64,000 nucleotides of DNA from Hyaloraphidium curvatum. Lineage: Eukaryota > Monoblepharomycota > Hyaloraphidiomycetes > Hyaloraphidiales > Hyaloraphidiaceae. Positions within the stretch are counted from its first letter, which is position 1; each line of letters starts with the position of its first letter. The notes under the pieces are model-generated. The model did no database searches. It saw nothing but the letters and a program-made list of their open reading frames with translations, and was not told the origin of the DNA. Positions 1 to 34,646 of the stretch are shown here, in pieces. A program made the translations under genes and the position numbers. The DNA lies in assembly GCA_025558095.1 (NCBI GenBank), contig JAIVFI010000034.1:310001-374000 (forward strand). Reading direction: 5' to 3'.

Positions 1-1
1 G

Positions 2-520
2 AGGAGGACGCGTGCCAGGTGCCCGGTCGCACCATTCCGAAGGTGGGGCAGGCTGCGCCTCAGCCCGCAACTCGTGGTCATGACACGCCACCTACACCTG
101 CTGCCTCAGGGTGCGCTCATCGTTCGGCACTTCAGCGGAAATCCCACGCGCGAGGGATGGCAAACGGTTGTGTCATTCCACTTGGAGTGCGTTCGGCCGA
201 GCTGGGTCAAGCGTTGGGAGCTGAAGGACGACATGCTGGATTCAGCTCTATCTGCCCAGGTGAGACCGGCTTTCTGCCTTGACGATTGCATCTGATGGCC
301 GAACTCTGCGCAGGACAAGGCCTACATCAAGGAGTGTTTCGACGTCGGCCAAAACGAGCGCTTCTGGGAGGCGAGGCGGGGCTCGCTGCATGAGGACCAG
401 TTGTTCGTAGCCCGCACCGTCTACGAGGCGCAGCAGCAGTCGCTGACGTCCCCTGCGGCGCGGAAGGCAGAGGCAAGGAGGAAGGCGGAGGCCGATCGGA
501 TCGCGGCCGAGGCCGAGTGA
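2..520 (+). CDS. 3' part of an unrecognised protein gene
   Basis: The reading frame is open from the window edge, so the 5' end is missing or lies in an upstream exon. Exon 2-259 joins exon 314-520 across a 54-nt GT-AG intron (260-313) in phase 0. The visible product is about 154 residues. The first Met in frame is at 80. The sequence is mixed alpha/beta, with aromatic residues in the middle (WVKRWELKDDM) and an Ala/Arg/Glu-rich helical tail that begins near SPAARKAEARRKAEAD. No family is recognised. The short charged tail could be a coiled coil or nucleic-acid contact, but that is only inference. The gene is followed by a 509-nt gap and then another plus-strand gene. Confidence 0.5.
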
Positions 521-1029
521 CGGTCGTGCCTCCTGCCTCGGAGGCGTCCTTGGTAGAGACGGCGACTCTTGAAGGTGCTTTTACACGATCCGTGATTCTT
601 TCTGAAAGGCACCGTCGATCCTCTTTTGTCCTCTTTGTTGGTTCGATCCCACTGATCTCCTGAAGCTGGCAGAGCATTGCTCCGCGTCTGGTCCCGCGGT
701 CCCGAAACGACACAACCCGGCGTTCGACCCGGCAGGCCTTCCGCTTTCCCCGCTGCGCCCTCCCAAAACGGCGCATCGCCTCGTACTTTGAGCGAGTCGC
801 GTGCCTGCTGGCCGGGCGCCCTCCTTTTCCGCGGCGGTGCGCCCGTTTCGCGACTCTTTGGTCGCGCGACCTCACACGCTTCCCGGGACCGCTCCGGCAG
901 GGCAAGGAGGTGCACGTCGCCGCAAACCCACTGTACCTTCTCTTCTATTGCCTCTTTTGCTCGCCGTTTGATCCAATCGCCTCCGGCAACGCAGTTCTCC
1001 AACGTTCCTCGCGCGACGTCGGACGCGAG
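521..1029. other. Intergenic stretch, no gene seen
   Basis: This 509-nt region separates two plus-strand genes. Long ORFs run through it on both strands, but they lack domain-like sequence, carry arginine-rich GC-biased composition and overlap real exons, so I treat them as chance frames. It probably holds the 3' UTR of the upstream gene and the promoter and 5' UTR of the zinc-finger/L7Ae gene. A GGTTCGATCCC string at about 640 resembles a tRNA T-loop, but no cloverleaf forms around it. Confidence 0.5.
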
Positions 1030-1950
1030 ATGCCACTCCAGCGGAGGGCGGTTTCTTCCATCGTACCGAAATTCTTTAACCGTGGATCGTGGCTCACTGA
1101 CGATAACGAGTGTATCATCTGTGGTGGCGTCCTCCGGGACAAGGAGGATCGGGGTGAGGTCGAGGAGCATCTCAGGTCATCGTACCACGTCAGGCGCTAC
1201 GTCCAGGAAGTGGTACGTTCCTTTGTGCCGTATCTTTGTCCTTGATTGCTCATTGGGAATTTGCAGGACGTGCTGCTCCTCGGGACGGCGGCATCCGAGG
1301 CCCTGGATCTTCTTCAACGTGCCCATGACCGCGAGCAGGTCCGCTTCGGACTCGACAGCGGTGAGCTCCGGCACATGTCATGGCGTTGATTTTGCTGCTG
1401 ACCGCGGTGGTTTGCCTTTCCCAGTCCAGCGGTACCTCTGGGGGCACAAGCACCTGAACATTGCCGGGGAGGCCCAACCCGTGAGGCGCAGCCAGGGACC
1501 GGTGGAGTTCGTCCTCATCGCCATGGACGTCACCGGCAAGGCGACGAGATGCGTGGAAGCCATCAGCGCCCTGTGCAAGGCAAGGGTACGGCGCTCACCG
1601 TCTCCTATCGGCTTCCCTTCTAACCTGTCTTTCCGCCCCCATGTTTGTTTGTGGTACGTTCGTTGACATCTCTTCTACTCGCGCAGAACGTCCCAGTGGC
1701 AGCTGTCCGTTCCCAAGTGCTCCTCGGGGCGGCGTGCGGCTTCTCCAAGGGCACCACGTGTGCGCTGGTCAAGGGCGGCACCCACGTGGCCGATCGGCAA
1801 CGGATCAATGAACTGGTTCGGCGGATCCGCCTCATCCAGGAGGGAACCTTCGGGCCGGACGAGGATCCCGGAGACTCTCCGTCGTTCGTCGCTTTCGGGC
1901 CTGGTCCCGCTGGCAGACCGGCTTCAGCTGACGAGTCGGACGGCGGATAA
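1030..1950 (+). CDS. C2H2-like zinc finger plus L7Ae-type RNA-binding domain protein
   Basis: Exons 1030-1212, 1267-1360, 1425-1585 and 1687-1950 give a 233-residue protein in perfect frame. Near residues 28-53 there is a Cys-x2-Cys-x15-His-x5-His pattern (ECIICGG then EEHLRSSYH) that resembles a single C2H2 finger. From about residue 100 to 190 the sequence resembles the L7Ae/L30e/NHP2 family: a FVLIAMDV strand, CKARNVPVAAV, then LLGAACG, matching the order strand, helix, strand, LGxAxG helix of that fold. L7Ae proteins bind kink-turn RNAs in ribosomes, snoRNPs, RNase P or SECIS complexes. The combination with a finger is unusual to me, so its partner RNA is unknown. The last intron (101 nt) is longer than most. 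An in-frame GTG at 910 lies upstream of the chosen ATG. Confidence 0.6.
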
Positions 1951-2119
1951 CGGACATTTGAGGTTATGCTATCGAGTGTTGCTATCGGATGTGGTTATCA
2001 CATGTTATGTTTGTGGAAGACTGTATACTAGAACCATTACACTGCGTGCTCCGAGAACTCCGAACGCCACGATCTTCCCGATGCCCCAAGCAGTCGTTCG
2101 AAGGAATCCGTCGGCCTTG

Positions 2120-2941
2120 TCATCGAACGACCCATGTCGGCTCGATCCGGACGCCCTTCTCGATGACCCTCTGGAGGATTCGTACGATGTTGCGAGTGTC
2201 ATCTATCCCGCGGTGCGGCGTGCCTTCGAATCTCTCCCCCATTACTCGGAGCATGTCGGGGATCTTGAGCTTCCTGTAGTCACGGCGCTTGAAAGCCTGG
2301 CCGAACTTGACCTTGAGATCCGTCCACCTTTTCATGCACGGGGGAACAACGATCTTGTTGATCGAGCACGTGGTCGGAATGAACTTTTGAAGGTCTGTGT
2401 CGCCGTCCGTCACGAATAGCGTATCGGTTAGATCCGGCGTGGAGTCGAAGATTCGGAGCCAGCTGACGAACGCCCTGAACGCTTCCTCGAAAGACGGCGC
2501 TTCGTCGACCTGCTCTTGCGTGATGCCCACGAATCCGTTGCAAAAGGGAGACAGCTCCTTGTTCAAGACTGGCTTGGCGAAAGACGTGAACTCGGCGACG
2601 GGCAGGAGCGAGCGAGCGCAGACGACTATGGCCGCCATCTCGATGACCTCATTCGGGTACTCGGTGCCGCTGCCTTCCTCGCAGGTGCACTCGAGGTCCA
2701 TGACCACGAGCCACTCGGCCGAGTGCGCGTTCGGCAGTTCGCGCCGGCGAGCGAGGAGCGTCCGAACACGCGCGTCCTCGCGGGTCTCCTCGGCGCGAAT
2801 CCCGGTGCGCGGCACGGGAGCGGGTCCTTTGTCTCCTGCGCCATAGTTCTCCATTTGTTCCTGCCGGGCTGGGCGTTTTCCGTCTTTCGAAATGTGGATG
2901 TCGTGCGCTGGTGATTGCAACGCGTCGCGCTGCCACCTCAT
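2120..2941 (-). CDS. ERI1/3'hExo-type DEDDh 3'-5' exoribonuclease
   Basis: This is a single-exon protein of up to 273 residues. An alternative start at 2854 gives 244 residues and leaves a longer spacer to the divergent neighbour. The exonuclease fold is clear: Exo I is MDLECTCEEG, which supplies the catalytic Asp and Glu, followed by PNEVIEMAAIVV. Exo II is the TDTLFVTDGDTDLQKF region. Exo III is HRGIDDTRNIVRI, which supplies the catalytic His and Asp. ERI1-family enzymes trim histone mRNA 3' ends, 5.8S rRNA or small RNAs. No N-terminal SAP domain is seen, so this is closer to the short ERI2/ERI3-like or QDE-2-interacting-protein type. It is divergent from the RG-rich gene that starts at 2964. 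Confidence 0.85.
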   Translation of the reverse strand: MRWQRDALQSPAHDIHISKDGKRPARQEQMENYGAGDKGPAPVPRTGIRAEETREDARVRTLLARRRELPNAHSAEWLVVMDLECTCEEGSGTEYPNEVIEMAAIVVCARSLLPVAEFTSFAKPVLNKELSPFCNGFVGITQEQVDEAPSFEEAFRAFVSWLRIFDSTPDLTDTLFVTDGDTDLQKFIPTTCSINKIVVPPCMKRWTDLKVKFGQAFKRRDYRKLKIPDMLRVMGERFEGTPHRGIDDTRNIVRILQRVIEKGVRIEPTWVVR

Positions 2942-2963
2942 CGCTTCCTGCCGACCTCGCGCG

Positions 2964-4004
2964 ATGTCGCGTCCCTCCTCTACCGGCTCCAGGGACGAGG
3001 AGCTCGACCTCCTCGATGCTCAGCTCGCCGATTTGCAAGGCCTTGAAGCGGTCGCGCGCAAGTTCTCGGGAACCCGCGTGATGCCGCGGCCCCCTCCGCC
3101 TCCGCCTGCACCTTCTCGCGGCGGACGGGCGAAGCGCCCCGCCGGTCCTGGTGGACGCGGCAGCCGTGCAGGTGGACGCGGACGTGCCGTTCGGGTCGGC
3201 GGCGAAGCAGGTGGTGGGGAGGATGAGGAGGCGTTCGCCGGAGCTGCGCCGGCGCCTCGCGGGCACGGGCGCGGGAAGGGCCGCGGACGGAGCCGTGGAG
3301 GTCGGGGCAGCGGCCGGGCTGGGCGTCGCGGCCGGGGAGTTGGGCGAGGTGGCTCCGCCGCGGCCGATCGGTCCCCGGTCGAAGCGCCCGCGGCGGACTC
3401 GGACGCGGACCGCGTCTCGGACGCCGGTTCTGGATTCGTCGAGCTCGTGGACCTGCCGGAAGGAACGCTGACGGAGCCCGACGAGGACGACGTCGCCGCC
3501 TCCATTTTGGCGGGGATGGGGGCTCTCGGTGCAGGCTCAGTCGGCGTCAAGGACGAGCTCGCAAATTCGGACGGCGTGCCCTGCGTCGCGGGCGATCGCT
3601 GCAAGCGCAGCATCTCGCGAGGTGTCCCGGCTCGCGTGCCTCGATCGTCGACGGTGCAATGTGGCTTTTGCCGTGGAGCCGCCTGCAGCACGGGTTGCCT
3701 CATTCGCGTGCGGAACGAAGCGGGAATGATGGATTTCTACTGCCGCGGCTGCCATGCCAACTTCGGTAGGTCTGACTGCATTGCATTACCGTTTCCTGCT
3801 GCTGACTCAACCACAGGTCCACCTGAACGTCGAGGCATGGCCGGGCGGAAGCGCTCACACCTCGTCGACGACGCTGGAGGCACCACGGCTTCCGGATCTA
3901 CCCAGAAAAGGAGGAAGCTTGCGAAAGGCGCGAGCGGCGAAGGAGGTGCCGACGAGATCTCGTCGGAGCAGACAGTCGCGCAGTCTGATTCAGAGATGGA
4001 TTAA
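2964..4004 (+). CDS. RG/GRG-rich protein with C-terminal Cys cluster
   Basis: Exons are 2964-3765 and 3817-4004. The 51-nt intron is a multiple of three, so the frame is open even if it is retained. The N-terminus is acidic and helical (SRDEELDLLDAQLADL). A proline run follows, then about 100 residues dominated by Arg-Gly and Gly-Arg steps, and then an acidic linker. Near the end lies a cysteine cluster: CGFC, then CSTGC, then CRGCH, a pattern able to bind one or two Zn ions. The tail is basic, with an RKR and KRRK nuclear-signal-like segment. RG repeats commonly bind RNA and are arginine-methylated. I do not recognise the Cys cluster as a named family. The product is probably a nuclear RNA- or chromatin-associated protein. 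Confidence 0.6.
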   Translation: MSRPSSTGSRDEELDLLDAQLADLQGLEAVARKFSGTRVMPRPPPPPPAPSRGGRAKRPAGPGGRGSRAGGRGRAVRVGGEAGGGEDEEAFAGAAPAPRGHGRGKGRGRSRGGRGSGRAGRRGRGVGRGGSAAADRSPVEAPAADSDADRVSDAGSGFVELVDLPEGTLTEPDEDDVAASILAGMGALGAGSVGVKDELANSDGVPCVAGDRCKRSISRGVPARVPRSSTVQCGFCRGAACSTGCLIRVRNEAGMMDFYCRGCHANFGRSDCIALPFPAADSTTGPPERRGMAGRKRSHLVDDAGGTTASGSTQKRRKLAKGASGEGGADEISSEQTVAQSDSEMD

Positions 4005-4243
4005 GGCATAGAGGAGAAGATCATGATGTCAGTTCATCCGTACACTGTAGAGCCTTGGAGACAGCACATGCACTGCACGTCCTTGTCATGGTGCGGCATT
4101 GCAATAGATTTGAACTTTGACCGATGGTGGAGGTGGAGCTGCGCTGCTCGTCGCTGTCGCTCGCTTCCTTCGCTACTCCCCACGCTCGCTTCCTTCCCGT
4201 ACGCGTCGCTTTTGCCCCGAAACATCCTCTGCGCTGCTCTACA

Positions 4244-5289
4244 ATGCCTGCTTCTGCTCTCTTCGTCGGCGTGCCGCCGCGGGACCAGCTCGTGGACCCG
4301 GCCACGGTCCCCTTCTACCGAGGAATGTTTGAACATTATGCGATGGCCCGCGTGCCTACTGCCGGGGCGGATCGCGGCTCGCTGCTGCAACTGGCGCGGC
4401 ACGCGGGAGAATTGGGCGGATGGGCTGGCGAGCCCGCGGTGGACTACTACGTCGTCTCGGAGCAGCTCATCCGCGACGAAGAGCGGCTCGACCTCCTCCG
4501 TCTTCCCAAGGCCTTTCGATGTCTGGAGAATCTCGAGCGCTCTCGCAGGCAGCGGTACGAGCTTGGTGATCGGAGGGTGCTCCAGGCGGAGAAGGACCGC
4601 CTCGCTGCAGCGGCGGAGGCCGCTATCGACGGCGACCCCGTGATTCTGCAAGCGATCGATTTCCGCGACGCGGTGGCGGCCACGGATGAGATGCACGCCA
4701 AGCTGGAGAGGCAGTGCGAGTTCGTGCTCTTGGTCAGCGCAAAGCTCGTAGGTTGCCCGGCCGCGGATACCACCGTTCCTCATTCGCCAACTTCAAACAG
4801 GTCATTGAGATTGCAATGCGCCGCGGCAAGAGCCCGGAACAGGCCGGTGCCATCGTCAACGCCCTTTATCCTGCTCCAGGGGGAGCCGTGCCAACCCATA
4901 GTCCCTTCGAACTGCGGCATTATGGCTACGACTGTCGGGCGTACCTTACGGAATTGATTGGAATGCTTGACCGCGCCCTCCGCAGCGCGAGCGCCGAGCA
5001 GGGATCCGAGCTGTGGGTCTGGTTTCGGACTCGGCATTGCTGGTTTGCCAACGCCATCCATCGCAGGACCCCGGACCAGGTCGCTGGTGTGGTCTCGCAG
5101 TACACCGACCCGACCCGAACCTGGTCCTACGCCTGCGCCAAGATCACCAAATACCTGACGTCCTTCTGTGATTTCTTTTGGGGACACGTCGGACCGTTGC
5201 TCGAGCGTTCCGGTGGTGCTGGGTACCGGGACGAGCTGCGCAGGGCTGCCGAGCAGCAGGCCGGCGAAGTGGAACTCGCGGAAGGGTAG
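4244..5289 (+). CDS. Unrecognised alpha-helical protein
   Basis: Exons 4244-4747 and 4801-5289 (intron 53 nt) encode 330 residues. The start chosen is the first Met after a serine-rich upstream frame (MPASALFVGVPPRDQ). The protein is rich in Ala, Arg, Leu and Glu and is mainly helical; a charged helical stretch lies at about residues 85-135. The C-terminal half has aromatic clusters (WVWFRTRHCWFANAI and FCDFFWGHVG) that look like a folded core rather than a membrane span. No signal peptide or known motif is seen. It sits among other orphan genes, all on the plus strand apart from the exonuclease. I cannot assign a function. Confidence 0.55.
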
Positions 5290-5713
5290 TGGCTGCGGTC
5301 GATCGAGGACCGGTTCCGGAATGTGGAGGTCTGTCTGCTTGACCGTGCGATGCGTCGGAGATGGGTGATTGGGCTCGGTCCCGAACCAGAAACTGTGAAT
5401 AGGAAAAGGCGTTTCGGAGTGCTTGAAAGGAGGAGCGAATCCTGGCTTGGGGACGAAGTCGAAAATGGCGTCCTGCTCCCGGGCGTCATGCAACCTTCGG
5501 TGCGAGTCCTGTGCCGAACAAAGTCGCTAATTAACCCTTAGTCCCCTTGCGTCCCGCATTCTGACCGCTCTGGGCCTGCGCACCGCTCTGGGCCCGCATC
5601 GCCCCGCGCCTCGCGCGTTAGAGGGCGGGCTTAAGCCGGGCGGCCGGCGCGGTCGGCGGCGGAGCGCGGCAGCCGGGAGGAGCGCGTCGCACTCGCTGAG
5701 CGGCGTTCCCAAA
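5290..5713. other. Intergenic stretch with short direct repeat
   Basis: This 424-nt gap has no convincing gene. Between about 5563 and 5600 a near-perfect direct repeat occurs (CCGCTCTGGGCC followed by a second CCGCTCTGGGCC after a few bases). The remainder is the probable 3' UTR of the upstream gene and the promoter of the long ORF. Confidence 0.4.
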
Positions 5714-8700
5714 ATGCCCGGCGGCTCTGTCGAGCACACTTCACACTCATCTCGCGGTATCCGTTCCTCCAGCATCCTGCAGCAGCTGCTGCTCCGCGCG
5801 TTGCAGAAGGCACCGTTCCCCGACAAGGCGGATCTGGAGGACCCCACCCTGACCTGGGAAGCACGGGAGGGCATGGTCAACCACCGCGACTATCGCTTTA
5901 CGTGGCCGAAGATAGCAAACTCGGACGCAAAGATCGCGAACGCCCTGACTGTTTTCATTCGGGCATGCGCGCTGGCAAACCCGCCGCTGCCGGCAGCCCA
6001 GCCCGAGGATGATGAGGGGCCTCAGGAGGACAGCGAGGAGCATGCCAAGCGCTTTTGGGACGAAGTCGCGTCGAAGCAGCTGAAGCGGGGCAAGGCGGTC
6101 CGCCCCGTGCCCATCCGGACCAAGGTCGTAGACTCACCGGTCAAGCTCTCCGCGCGCAACCTGGAGCACCTGATCATAAGGCCTCTGTCTCGCGAGCGTG
6201 GGGGTCTGGTGCAAGGTGTGCCGTCGAGAGATATCGTCGACTTCCGGGAGCACCTGTACAAGCGTACGGAATCGGATCTTCTGGAGGGCGACTCGCAGGA
6301 GCCCGACGTGGAGCAAACGGAGGCCGATGACCTCGTGCCGACCGGCACCATGACCTCGTGCGAGTTCTTCTCCAACCTCATGGCCATGCGATTCTTCGTG
6401 CCGAATTCTCAGATCGTCGAGGTCGAGATCGGCGAGGGCAGGACGGTGCGCAAGCGTATCCTGGTGCGGCAGCGCGGGCGCTGGTACCTCGTCCTCGCCT
6501 TCAACATGTCTACCGACGGCTTCGTCATGTACCTGCACCTGTGGCTGTCTGCTTGGCACGATCCGGAGCATCGCTTCCGGCTGGTGATCCCCGGGAACCC
6601 TCCGATCACGCCCGAGAGCCGAGGACATCTTCTCCGAGTTCGTGTCCTCGAAAAAACGAGCTCAAGTTCACCCCAAAGGGCCACATCTTCCCCTCTCCGG
6701 AACTCGCGCTGGCCAGCGGCGGTGGCGGCTCGATCGGCAACATGGGCGCGGTGGTGATCAGGCCCGAGGATGCCAAGCTCCGCGGCAGCACGATGAACGA
6801 CGCCGACCGCACGCCCATTGAGGGTCCATTCCGGGACACGGTGGGCGTGGACATTGGCGGCCACCACGCCGCGGAGATCCGCTACCGTCCAGTCGAGATG
6901 GAGCGAAGCGTCGCCCTCAAGATCTCGCTGAAGTTCATCGAGGAATGCGATGCCGGCGAGGAGGATCTGGTGCTGTTCCAGCTGCTCATGGCGGCGTTCA
7001 ACGAGGCGGCGGACCTCATGGGCGTCCCGCGGGCGGACAGCTACGAGCGCGAGGTGGAGCTGGCCGGGATGGGGCTGCTGCTGCTGTCAGAGGACTTCCA
7101 CAAGCTCGAAGTCGCCCGAGAAGTGCGCAAGCGCATCCGGGCGCTGCACCGCCAATCCGGTGCATACATCTCCAACCGTCAGCTCGCAGAGTTCAGCGGC
7201 CGCGCGCGCTACGATCGCTTCAACGCCATCCTGCTCGCCTCGGTCCCGGACCAACGCCGGCCCGGCCTGACTCTGCAGCAGATCCTGGATGCATTCAAGA
7301 GCACGACGCGCCGGCTCTTCCCGAAGCAGGCTGGTGCGGCGCCGTCCCTGTTTCATGGCGAGCTCTCGGAGCTGGACGTTGCCCACCAAGCCTACAACTC
7401 GCGGGAGGCGAAGAAGGCCAAGTTCGACCTGATGCGAACGATCGACCGTAACAAGCAGAAGGAGGCGCGCCTCTGGGAAGGTTCCACGTTCGTCGAGACG
7501 GATATGGTCGATCGGGACTATAAGCTCGCGTACAACCAGACGCAACTCCGGCAGTACCGCCACGGGGTGCTGCACCCGAAACCGCACATGCGCTTCACGG
7601 ACTCCCAGCCCGCCCGCGAGCCGCGCCGGGCCCTCGAGCTTGCCATGTTCCGCCCGAGCGAGCCGGACCGCCGGAAGCCCAACGTGCGCCAGCACACTGA
7701 CCCGTACTTTGGCGACATCTTGTCGGAGCCCGGGCCCAAGGAGGTCCTCTACCAGCCTCTCCACAACAACCCCAACGGGCCCGCGCTGGCCAAGATCGTC
7801 TACGTGGGCAAGGCAGGGTATCCACATCCTGGCGGGTACCTGTCGGTTGACCAGGCAGAGGTGGCTCACATTGTGGCTACGCACGGTCACCTGACGCTCA
7901 GGACGGACGAGAGGGGGACAAGTTCGCTGGACACGAGCTTCCACCGCCCCAACGCGTCCTACCTCGACATCAACCACCCGGACTCGCACACCTTCAACAG
8001 CATCACGCGCGAGTCCCACGAAGAGAACGCGCTGTCGAAGCTGCGTTTCAGCGAGACCACCTGCGGCCACGAAGGCACCAAGTTCCGGCGGCGGCACGAT
8101 CCCGGCGGGAACCGGCTCCTCCCGTACTGCATCACGCAGACCGGTGACGCCTTCCGGCGCTTCAAGTCGTACCGGTACGATGCAGAGGGGCTCCTGCTCG
8201 CCGGTGAGCACGTCGCCGGCTGCCCGAGGCGCGCGGCGAACGGGTTTGGACCCGTGCGTGCTACGCAACGCCTCCTTGCCGGGCATCGCCAGCGGCCCAA
8301 CGACCCGCCCGGCGTGCTGCAGAGGCACCTGGACCCGATCGGCTCGTGCTGCCGCCGCATCATGCAGCGCACCAAGCAGATCGAGGCGCTGCCGGAGGAG
8401 GAGCGGGAGCACAAGGAGGTCTATGCCGACGACGAGCAGCGGAGACACGCGGTGCACGGCCGAGACGCGATCGGGGCGAACGACAACGGGTTCGTGGGCG
8501 ATTCGTACCTCAGGTACGAGGGCCAGCGCCACGAGTTCAACATCCGGCCGGGTTACGTCTTCGATCCGCCGGCATTTCCGTGAAGCGATGTAGCGTCGAA
8601 GAGCCGAGTTTCGAAGCGGATTTTCGAGCTGGACGGGAAGCAGGTCGAGGTGCTGCGGGGATCGCAGCTGCCGCCGGGGCCGGGCAGGGCGTTCTGGGAT

Positions 8701-8754
8701 GCGGTGGAGGTCAGGGAGGACGGGACGGGGGTGGTGATTGTGGAGATCGACTAG
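5714..8754 (+). pseudogene. Long intronless orphan gene with frame changes and an in-frame TGA
   Basis: About 1,000 codons run without any normal intron, unusual for this window. The coding frame is phase 2 from 5714 to about 6610 and phase 1 from about 6657 onward. Between them, phase 3 reads a protein-like string (EDIFSEFVSSK), and a run of six A at 6651-6656 accounts for the second change. The phase-1 frame ends at TGA 8581-8583, but the same frame then continues 56 codons to TAG 8752-8754 with a plausible C-terminus (RIFELDGKQVEVL). Features include a strand-rich segment around VEVEIGEGRTVRKRILVRQR, a helical middle, and a late Cys/His group (TTCGHEG and GSCCRR). No family is recognised. 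The lesions could be decay, sequencing error or recoding. An alternative is a 77-nt intron from about 6584 to 6660 joining phases 2 and 1, but its acceptor lacks a pyrimidine tract. Confidence 0.5.
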
Positions 8755-33658: not shown

Positions 33659-34646
33659 TCAGATGTCGACAAAGACCGAGGCCCCTCCCTTCTCGTCCGG
33701 CACGCAGGCGTCGAAGAACACGCGACCCAGCCCGTCCGGCAGCGGCGACTCCTTCAGCACCGCGTACTGCTCCGGCGTGAGCTCGAACAGCGTGTGCCTC
33801 CCCTCGGCCGGCCTCTCGCCCGACGGGGCGCACTTTTCCAGGCCGGGGACGAGGTACTCGCTGAGCGGCGCCGGGCACCAGGGTGCGCGGTCGTAAGTGA
33901 AGTAGTCCTCGACGATTTCGGTGCCGGCAGGCAGATCGCGCGCGGCGACGGTGACCTGGTAGCCGTTGACGAGGCGGAAGACGGAGGTGGGAGACTCGGA
34001 GTGGTTCAGGTAGCGCCCGCCGTCCAAGATGAACATCAGCGCGTTCTTGGGTTCTTCGTAGTAGCAGTAGCAATGCATTGCGTCGCAGAGAGGCCCGTAT
34101 CTCTCGGGGTGGAGATTGGCGGCCCAAAGCAGGAGGTCGTGGTTTGCCTTGGTGACGCGCAGCACCTTCTTGTCGTCCAGGAACCAGAAGATCTACCGGA
34201 AACGGGCGTCAGGGCGTCAAAAAGTGGCCGCGAAGCAAGGCTGCTACCTGTCCCTCCTGCAGCGGCGCTGTCGTGAAGGTGCCAAGGCCATGGATATGCG
34301 ACACGCGGTTTTCGATGAGTTTGGGGAGCCCGGCGAGTTCTGCGGGCAGCTCCCGGCGGCCGGCGACTTGTACAGACGCAGCCTGGGTCGCATGGCTGCC
34401 GATGATAGGCGCCATTCGATTTTGGCCGGGGGTGAGCTTCGGGGAACGTGGCGGTGCGACGATGATTATCTGATCACGAGTCCGATCACAGCTTCTCCGT
34501 TCCTTCGCGCCACCCACAGACCGCATGCCACGAAGAGAGGCAATGATACCGCTGTCAGCGCACAGTGCGGCAACTGCTCGTAGATTGCGGGCGAGCGGAG
34601 GCTGGATGCCGCCGGCCTGCACGGATTGCAAGTGATCTGTCATCAC
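33659..34646 (-). CDS. SET-domain protein
   Basis: Minus-strand exons 34248-34646 and 33659-34192 (intron 55 nt) encode up to 310 residues. The SET domain starts at VSHIHGLGTFTTAPLQEGQ, joins IFWFLDDKKVLRV, and has RYLNHSESPTSVF, the NHS-containing cofactor/substrate motif, then VTVAARDLPAGTEIVEDYFTYDRAP with the conserved GxEIxxDY. SET domains methylate lysines on histones or other proteins. The ending lacks an obvious post-SET Cys cluster. The N-terminus is uncertain: Met at 34646, or at 34418 (MAPIIGSHATQ). A distinct substrate is not predictable. Confidence 0.75.

What the first reader, a model, noticed from the sequence alone, without database searches (positions are those of the whole stretch)
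5714..8754. Long intronless orphan gene in an intron-dense neighbourhood
About 3 kb of continuous coding-like sequence has no clear intron although most long genes here have several. I recognise no family. It might be a young retrocopy, a gene acquired from a virus or bacterium, or a mobile-element protein; it is the largest unexplained object in the window.
Basis: partly seen in the sequence, partly recalled or inferred. Interest (0 to 1): 0.6.

Follow-up and report, generated by a model that had tools for sequence, protein, structure and literature searches.

The report
Broken orphan gene with borrowed promoter

Summary
The coding stretch is real. Codon usage in window 5714-8580 (+) matches neighbouring conserved genes (RSCU r=0.96; antisense 0.71), and no simulated sequence gave so long an open frame. 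It carries two single-base frame shifts (~6617 and the A-run 6651-6656) and ends at a TGA (8581), not at 8754. Bases 8614-8751 are the C-terminal tail of a SET-like family with relatives at window 33.7 kb and on contig C1. No Pfam, NCBIfam, PHROG or PDB relative was found, and no parent gene in its own 31.9-Mb genome. The only other copy there is 177 bp (8431-8607, 94%) inside a small mosaic insertion on C3. The region upstream plus the start codon is a copy of the promoter of an unrelated C24 gene.

Being intronless is not unusual here: CPSF73 and P4-ATPase genes have 2-kb exons. A young retrocopy is unsupported: no parent gene was found. Recent viral or bacterial acquisition is unsupported: codon usage is host-like, and limited searches found nothing.

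Best reading: a lineage-restricted host gene with a captured promoter, now frameshifted (pseudogene or assembly error). Biochemical function is not determined; no fungal proteome could be searched.

The parts
5333..5722 (+). Copied promoter / 5' leader including the start codon; about 75% identical overall to the intergenic region upstream of an unrelated gene at C24:98615-99016, densest in the ~150 bp before the ATG
5714..6616 (+). First coding part of the orphan gene (301 codons, ATG at 5714)
6617..6656 (+). Damaged junction: +1 at ~6617, 12 codons in a third frame (AEDIFSEFVSSK), +1 in the A-run 6651-6656
   Evidence: codon-likelihood Viterbi
6655..8583 (+). Second coding part (642 codons) ending at TGA 8581-8583
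8431..8607 (+). Only other copy of the gene body found in the genome: 94% identical 177 bp at C3:668172-668348(-), TGA included; 6 synonymous and 3 non-synonymous differences before the TGA
8614..8754 (+). Remnant C-terminal tail of a SET-like family gene, not part of the orphan gene

Best explanation
Window 5714-8580 is a native, intronless, single-copy gene of lineage-restricted sequence, long resident in this high-GC genome. It carries upstream a promoter and 5' leader copied from the upstream region of another gene (C24), joined at the start codon, from which it was presumably transcribed, and it encoded a protein of about 955 residues: an N-terminal part with a strand-like stretch, a middle that reads as helical, and a polar basic C-terminal part. 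Two single-base shifts 37 bp apart now break the frame, so as assembled it would give only a truncated N-terminal protein: most likely a recently dead gene, or an assembly error at that spot. Shown: coding nature, breaks, promoter copy, absence of a known domain. Inferred: expression, a former role as a soluble, probably nucleic-acid- or protein-binding protein (weak, from composition only), and recency of the damage (from intact codon bias).
For: Codon usage identical in style to conserved neighbours. Third-position G+C signal over the whole stretch. Two +1 shifts fit best and no consensus intron fits. 5333-5722 aligns to the C24 intergenic region through the ATG and stops there, while the encoded proteins are unrelated. 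No parent or paralog. No family. The C3 fragment shows 6 synonymous to 3 non-synonymous changes and keeps the same TGA, mild evidence for past constraint and for 8581 as the true stop.
Against: Reads and transcripts were not available, so the shifts could be assembly errors and the gene intact. No fungal proteome could be searched, so a family may exist. Nine coding changes in 177 bp is a very small sample for constraint. The single-sequence structure model was uninformative (mean pLDDT 35), and a second job had not finished. The functional guess rests on composition alone.
Confidence: 0.62

Rival explanations
1. The gene is intact and functional in the organism; the two shifts are base-insertion errors in the assembly.
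For: One shift lies in a 6-A homopolymer; the other 2.8 kb are perfectly open with full codon bias.
Against: The conserved genes checked in the window (CPSF73, P4-ATPase exons, glycosyltransferase 21, RNase_T exonuclease) read without breaks, and two errors would have to fall within 40 bp.
Confidence: 0.3
2. A gene acquired from a virus, bacterium or mobile element and since adapted to the host.
For: Intronless, no known domain, single copy.
Against: No match in IMG/VR, phages, plasmids or GTDB genomes, though the contig scans detect close relatives only; no PHROG or transposon Pfam domain; host-like codon usage; no terminal inverted repeats.
Confidence: 0.06
3. A retrocopy of a multi-exon host gene.
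For: Lack of introns; small mosaic insertions with short direct repeats exist elsewhere in this genome.
Against: No parent gene found exon by exon; it carries a copied promoter, which a retrocopy of an mRNA would lack; no poly-A.
Confidence: 0.02

Closest known systems
Lineage-restricted (orphan) fungal genes
   Same: Real codon usage, no known domain, single copy
   Different: Frame broken; promoter apparently copied from another gene
Chimeric genes / promoter capture by segmental duplication
   Same: 5' flank and start codon match another locus and are joined to an unrelated coding sequence
   Different: The source of the coding sequence itself is unknown
SET-domain-like proteins (window 33662-34192, C1:373798-374472)
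   Same: Bases 8614-8751 encode the C-terminal tail of this family
   Different: The tail lies after the orphan gene's stop codon and is a leftover, not part of the gene; the Pfam SET score of the relative in the window (20.7) is just under the cut-off of 22.4
Chimeric retrogenes of Magnaporthe grisea (PMC2104539)
   Same: The C3 copy of the orphan's 3' end is fused to an unrelated ~255-bp piece also found in a C23 insertion flanked by short direct repeats
   Different: No LINE and no poly-A seen, direct repeats of only about 6-8 bp against 10-20 bp; applies to the C3/C23 insertions, not to the gene itself

Membership tests
Young retrocopy | Intron-containing parent gene in the genome | tested here: not met
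   Own-genome protein searches find only itself and the C3 tail
Young retrocopy | Poly-A tail and target-site duplication | tested here: not met
   No A-run after 8583, 8607 or 8754 in the sequence; duplication looked for by eye only, none seen
Mobile-element protein | Transposase, reverse transcriptase or helicase domain | tested here: not met
   No Pfam hit up to E=1 for the halves; none at E=10 for the 955-aa read-through
Mobile-element protein | Multiple copies and terminal repeats | tested here: not met
   Single copy plus one 177-bp fragment; no long terminal inverted repeat
Viral or bacterial acquisition | Homolog in viruses or prokaryotes | tested here: inconclusive
   No hits, but the contig scans find close relatives only and mycovirus sets were not available
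Viral or bacterial acquisition | Codon usage differing from host (if recent) | tested here: not met
   RSCU r=0.958 with conserved neighbours
Lineage-restricted gene | Protein-coding signal without known relatives | tested here: met
Lineage-restricted gene | Absence from proteomes of other fungi | not testable with these tools
   No fungal sequence collection available
SET-domain family | SET catalytic core in the protein | tested here: not met
   No SET hit in the orphan; only the downstream tail resembles the family's C-terminus

The most novel reading that the evidence does not exclude
An intact gene of a new protein family that arose by joining an anciently divergent coding sequence to another gene's duplicated promoter, and whose transcript served as raw material for mosaic insertions elsewhere in the genome.
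Probability: 0.12. Interest if true: 0.4.

Novelty: new member of a known kind. Interest (0 to 1): 0.22.

Why it matters
Orphan genes are common in fungi, so this one is mainly of local interest. It is a fairly clear case of a coding sequence sitting behind a copied promoter, and it shows how a strong open frame, a frameshift and an unrelated gene tail can be mistaken for one large gene. If the gene proved intact it would be a candidate new protein family.

Tried and rejected
Family scans with halves and a read-through (Pfam, NCBIfam, PHROGs, PDB): nothing above noise. Rfam over 4-10 kb: nothing. An intron at 6584-6660 or elsewhere in the junction: no acceptor or branch site fits the genome's own introns (GTGAGY..CTGAC..YAG). 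Classic -1 ribosomal frameshifting at the A-run: the heptamer AAAAAAC is present but in the wrong register for the incoming frame (worked out by hand). Stop readthrough or an intron to reach 8754: the C3 copy keeps the TGA and has AT in place of the possible GT donor, and the tail belongs to the SET-like family. Paralogy with the C24 gene that shares the promoter: no protein similarity. A 9.2-kb insertion splitting one SET-like gene (N half at C34:309.0-309.4 kb, tail at 318.6 kb): possible but not proven; window 1-5340 inside that block is single copy. Structure prediction of the 654-aa part gave pLDDT 35, so no fold search was run; a second job on 6880-7488 did not finish. Paper searches for orphan genes in basidiomycetes and promoter capture gave nothing of use.

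Full report
Observation. Codon-position G+C is strongly periodic along the + strand, switching phase near 6617-6655. A codon model trained only on conserved neighbours (CPSF73-like at 38.9-41.0 kb, P4-ATPase at 13.5-17 kb, glycosyltransferase 21 at 9.5-10.1 kb, RNase_T exonuclease at 2.1-2.9 kb; families) scores the two halves at 0.24 and 0.27 per codon. Leave-one-out values for the conserved genes themselves are 0.18-0.39, and the antisense strand scores -0.01. Relative synonymous codon usage correlates at 0.96 with the conserved genes. The stretch is therefore a genuine gene on the + strand, not shadow coding.

Structure of the gene. The start is taken as the ATG at 5714. A likelihood path through the frames places two +1 shifts, at about 6617 and in the A-run 6651-6656, with 12 well-coding codons in a third frame between them. 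A single shift at the A-run is 12 nats worse before the penalty of 6 for the extra shift. Clear introns in this window look like GTGAGY..CTGAC..YAG, and nothing of that kind fits the junction. The gene ends at TGA 8581. An N-terminal half of another SET-like copy lies at C34:309.1 kb, 0.7 kb left of the window, on the same strand.

Promoter. Bases 5333-5722 align with the intergenic region between two genes on C24 (98615-99016), from the stop of one to just past the ATG of the next. Overall identity is about 75%, densest in the 150 bp before the ATG. The C24 gene is unrelated in protein sequence. Because the C24 copy sits between two coding regions and even includes the last codons of the upstream one, the window copy is more likely the derived one (inference).

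Relatives. Nothing in Pfam, NCBIfam, PHROGs or PDB above noise, phages or plasmids, IMG/VR or GTDB genomes. The contig scans detect only close relatives, and no fungal proteome set was available. In its own genome the only other piece found is 177 bp (8431-8607) on C3, 94% identical, with 6 synonymous and 3 non-synonymous differences before the TGA and the same TGA. That piece is fused to a 255-bp sequence that also forms the end of a ~1.06-kb insertion in an NDH-2-like gene on C23 (gene named by eye from its protein sequence). The C23 insertion also carries a 94% copy of C34:309405-309761. Such patchwork resembles the chimeric retro-insertions described in Magnaporthe (PMC2104539), but without a LINE or poly-A it could equally be templated repair.

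Judgement. Lack of introns is not surprising here. Retrocopy, mobile-element and recent foreign origin are each unsupported by the tests made. The most economical reading is a lineage-restricted host gene behind a copied promoter, whose frame is now broken or mis-assembled. What the protein did cannot be derived from the available evidence; composition suggests a soluble, largely polar protein, and any more specific function would be a guess.

Noticed in passing
L030 1484-2541 (C23:273402-274458): About 1.06-kb mosaic insertion inside an NDH-2-like coding exon (identified by eye), flanked by GATGATGC direct repeats, built from a copy of C34:309405-309761, an unmatched middle, and a piece shared with C3.
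   Followed up: partly
L013 6173-6594 (C3:668172-668593): Orphan 3' end (reverse) fused to the same 255-bp piece; possible TGATCA direct repeats at the edges.
   Followed up: partly
L015 6890-7410 and window 8614-8754: N-terminal half and C-terminal tail of a SET-like gene 9.2 kb apart on the same strand: one gene possibly split by an insertion or rearrangement.
   Followed up: partly
window 4690-5286: Neighbouring gene without a Pfam domain that has a diverged relative at C15:297974-298408 (37% identity).
   Followed up: no
window 33662-34192 (-): SET-like gene scoring just below the Pfam SET cut-off; relative on C1 matched in three separate pieces, so with introns.
   Followed up: partly
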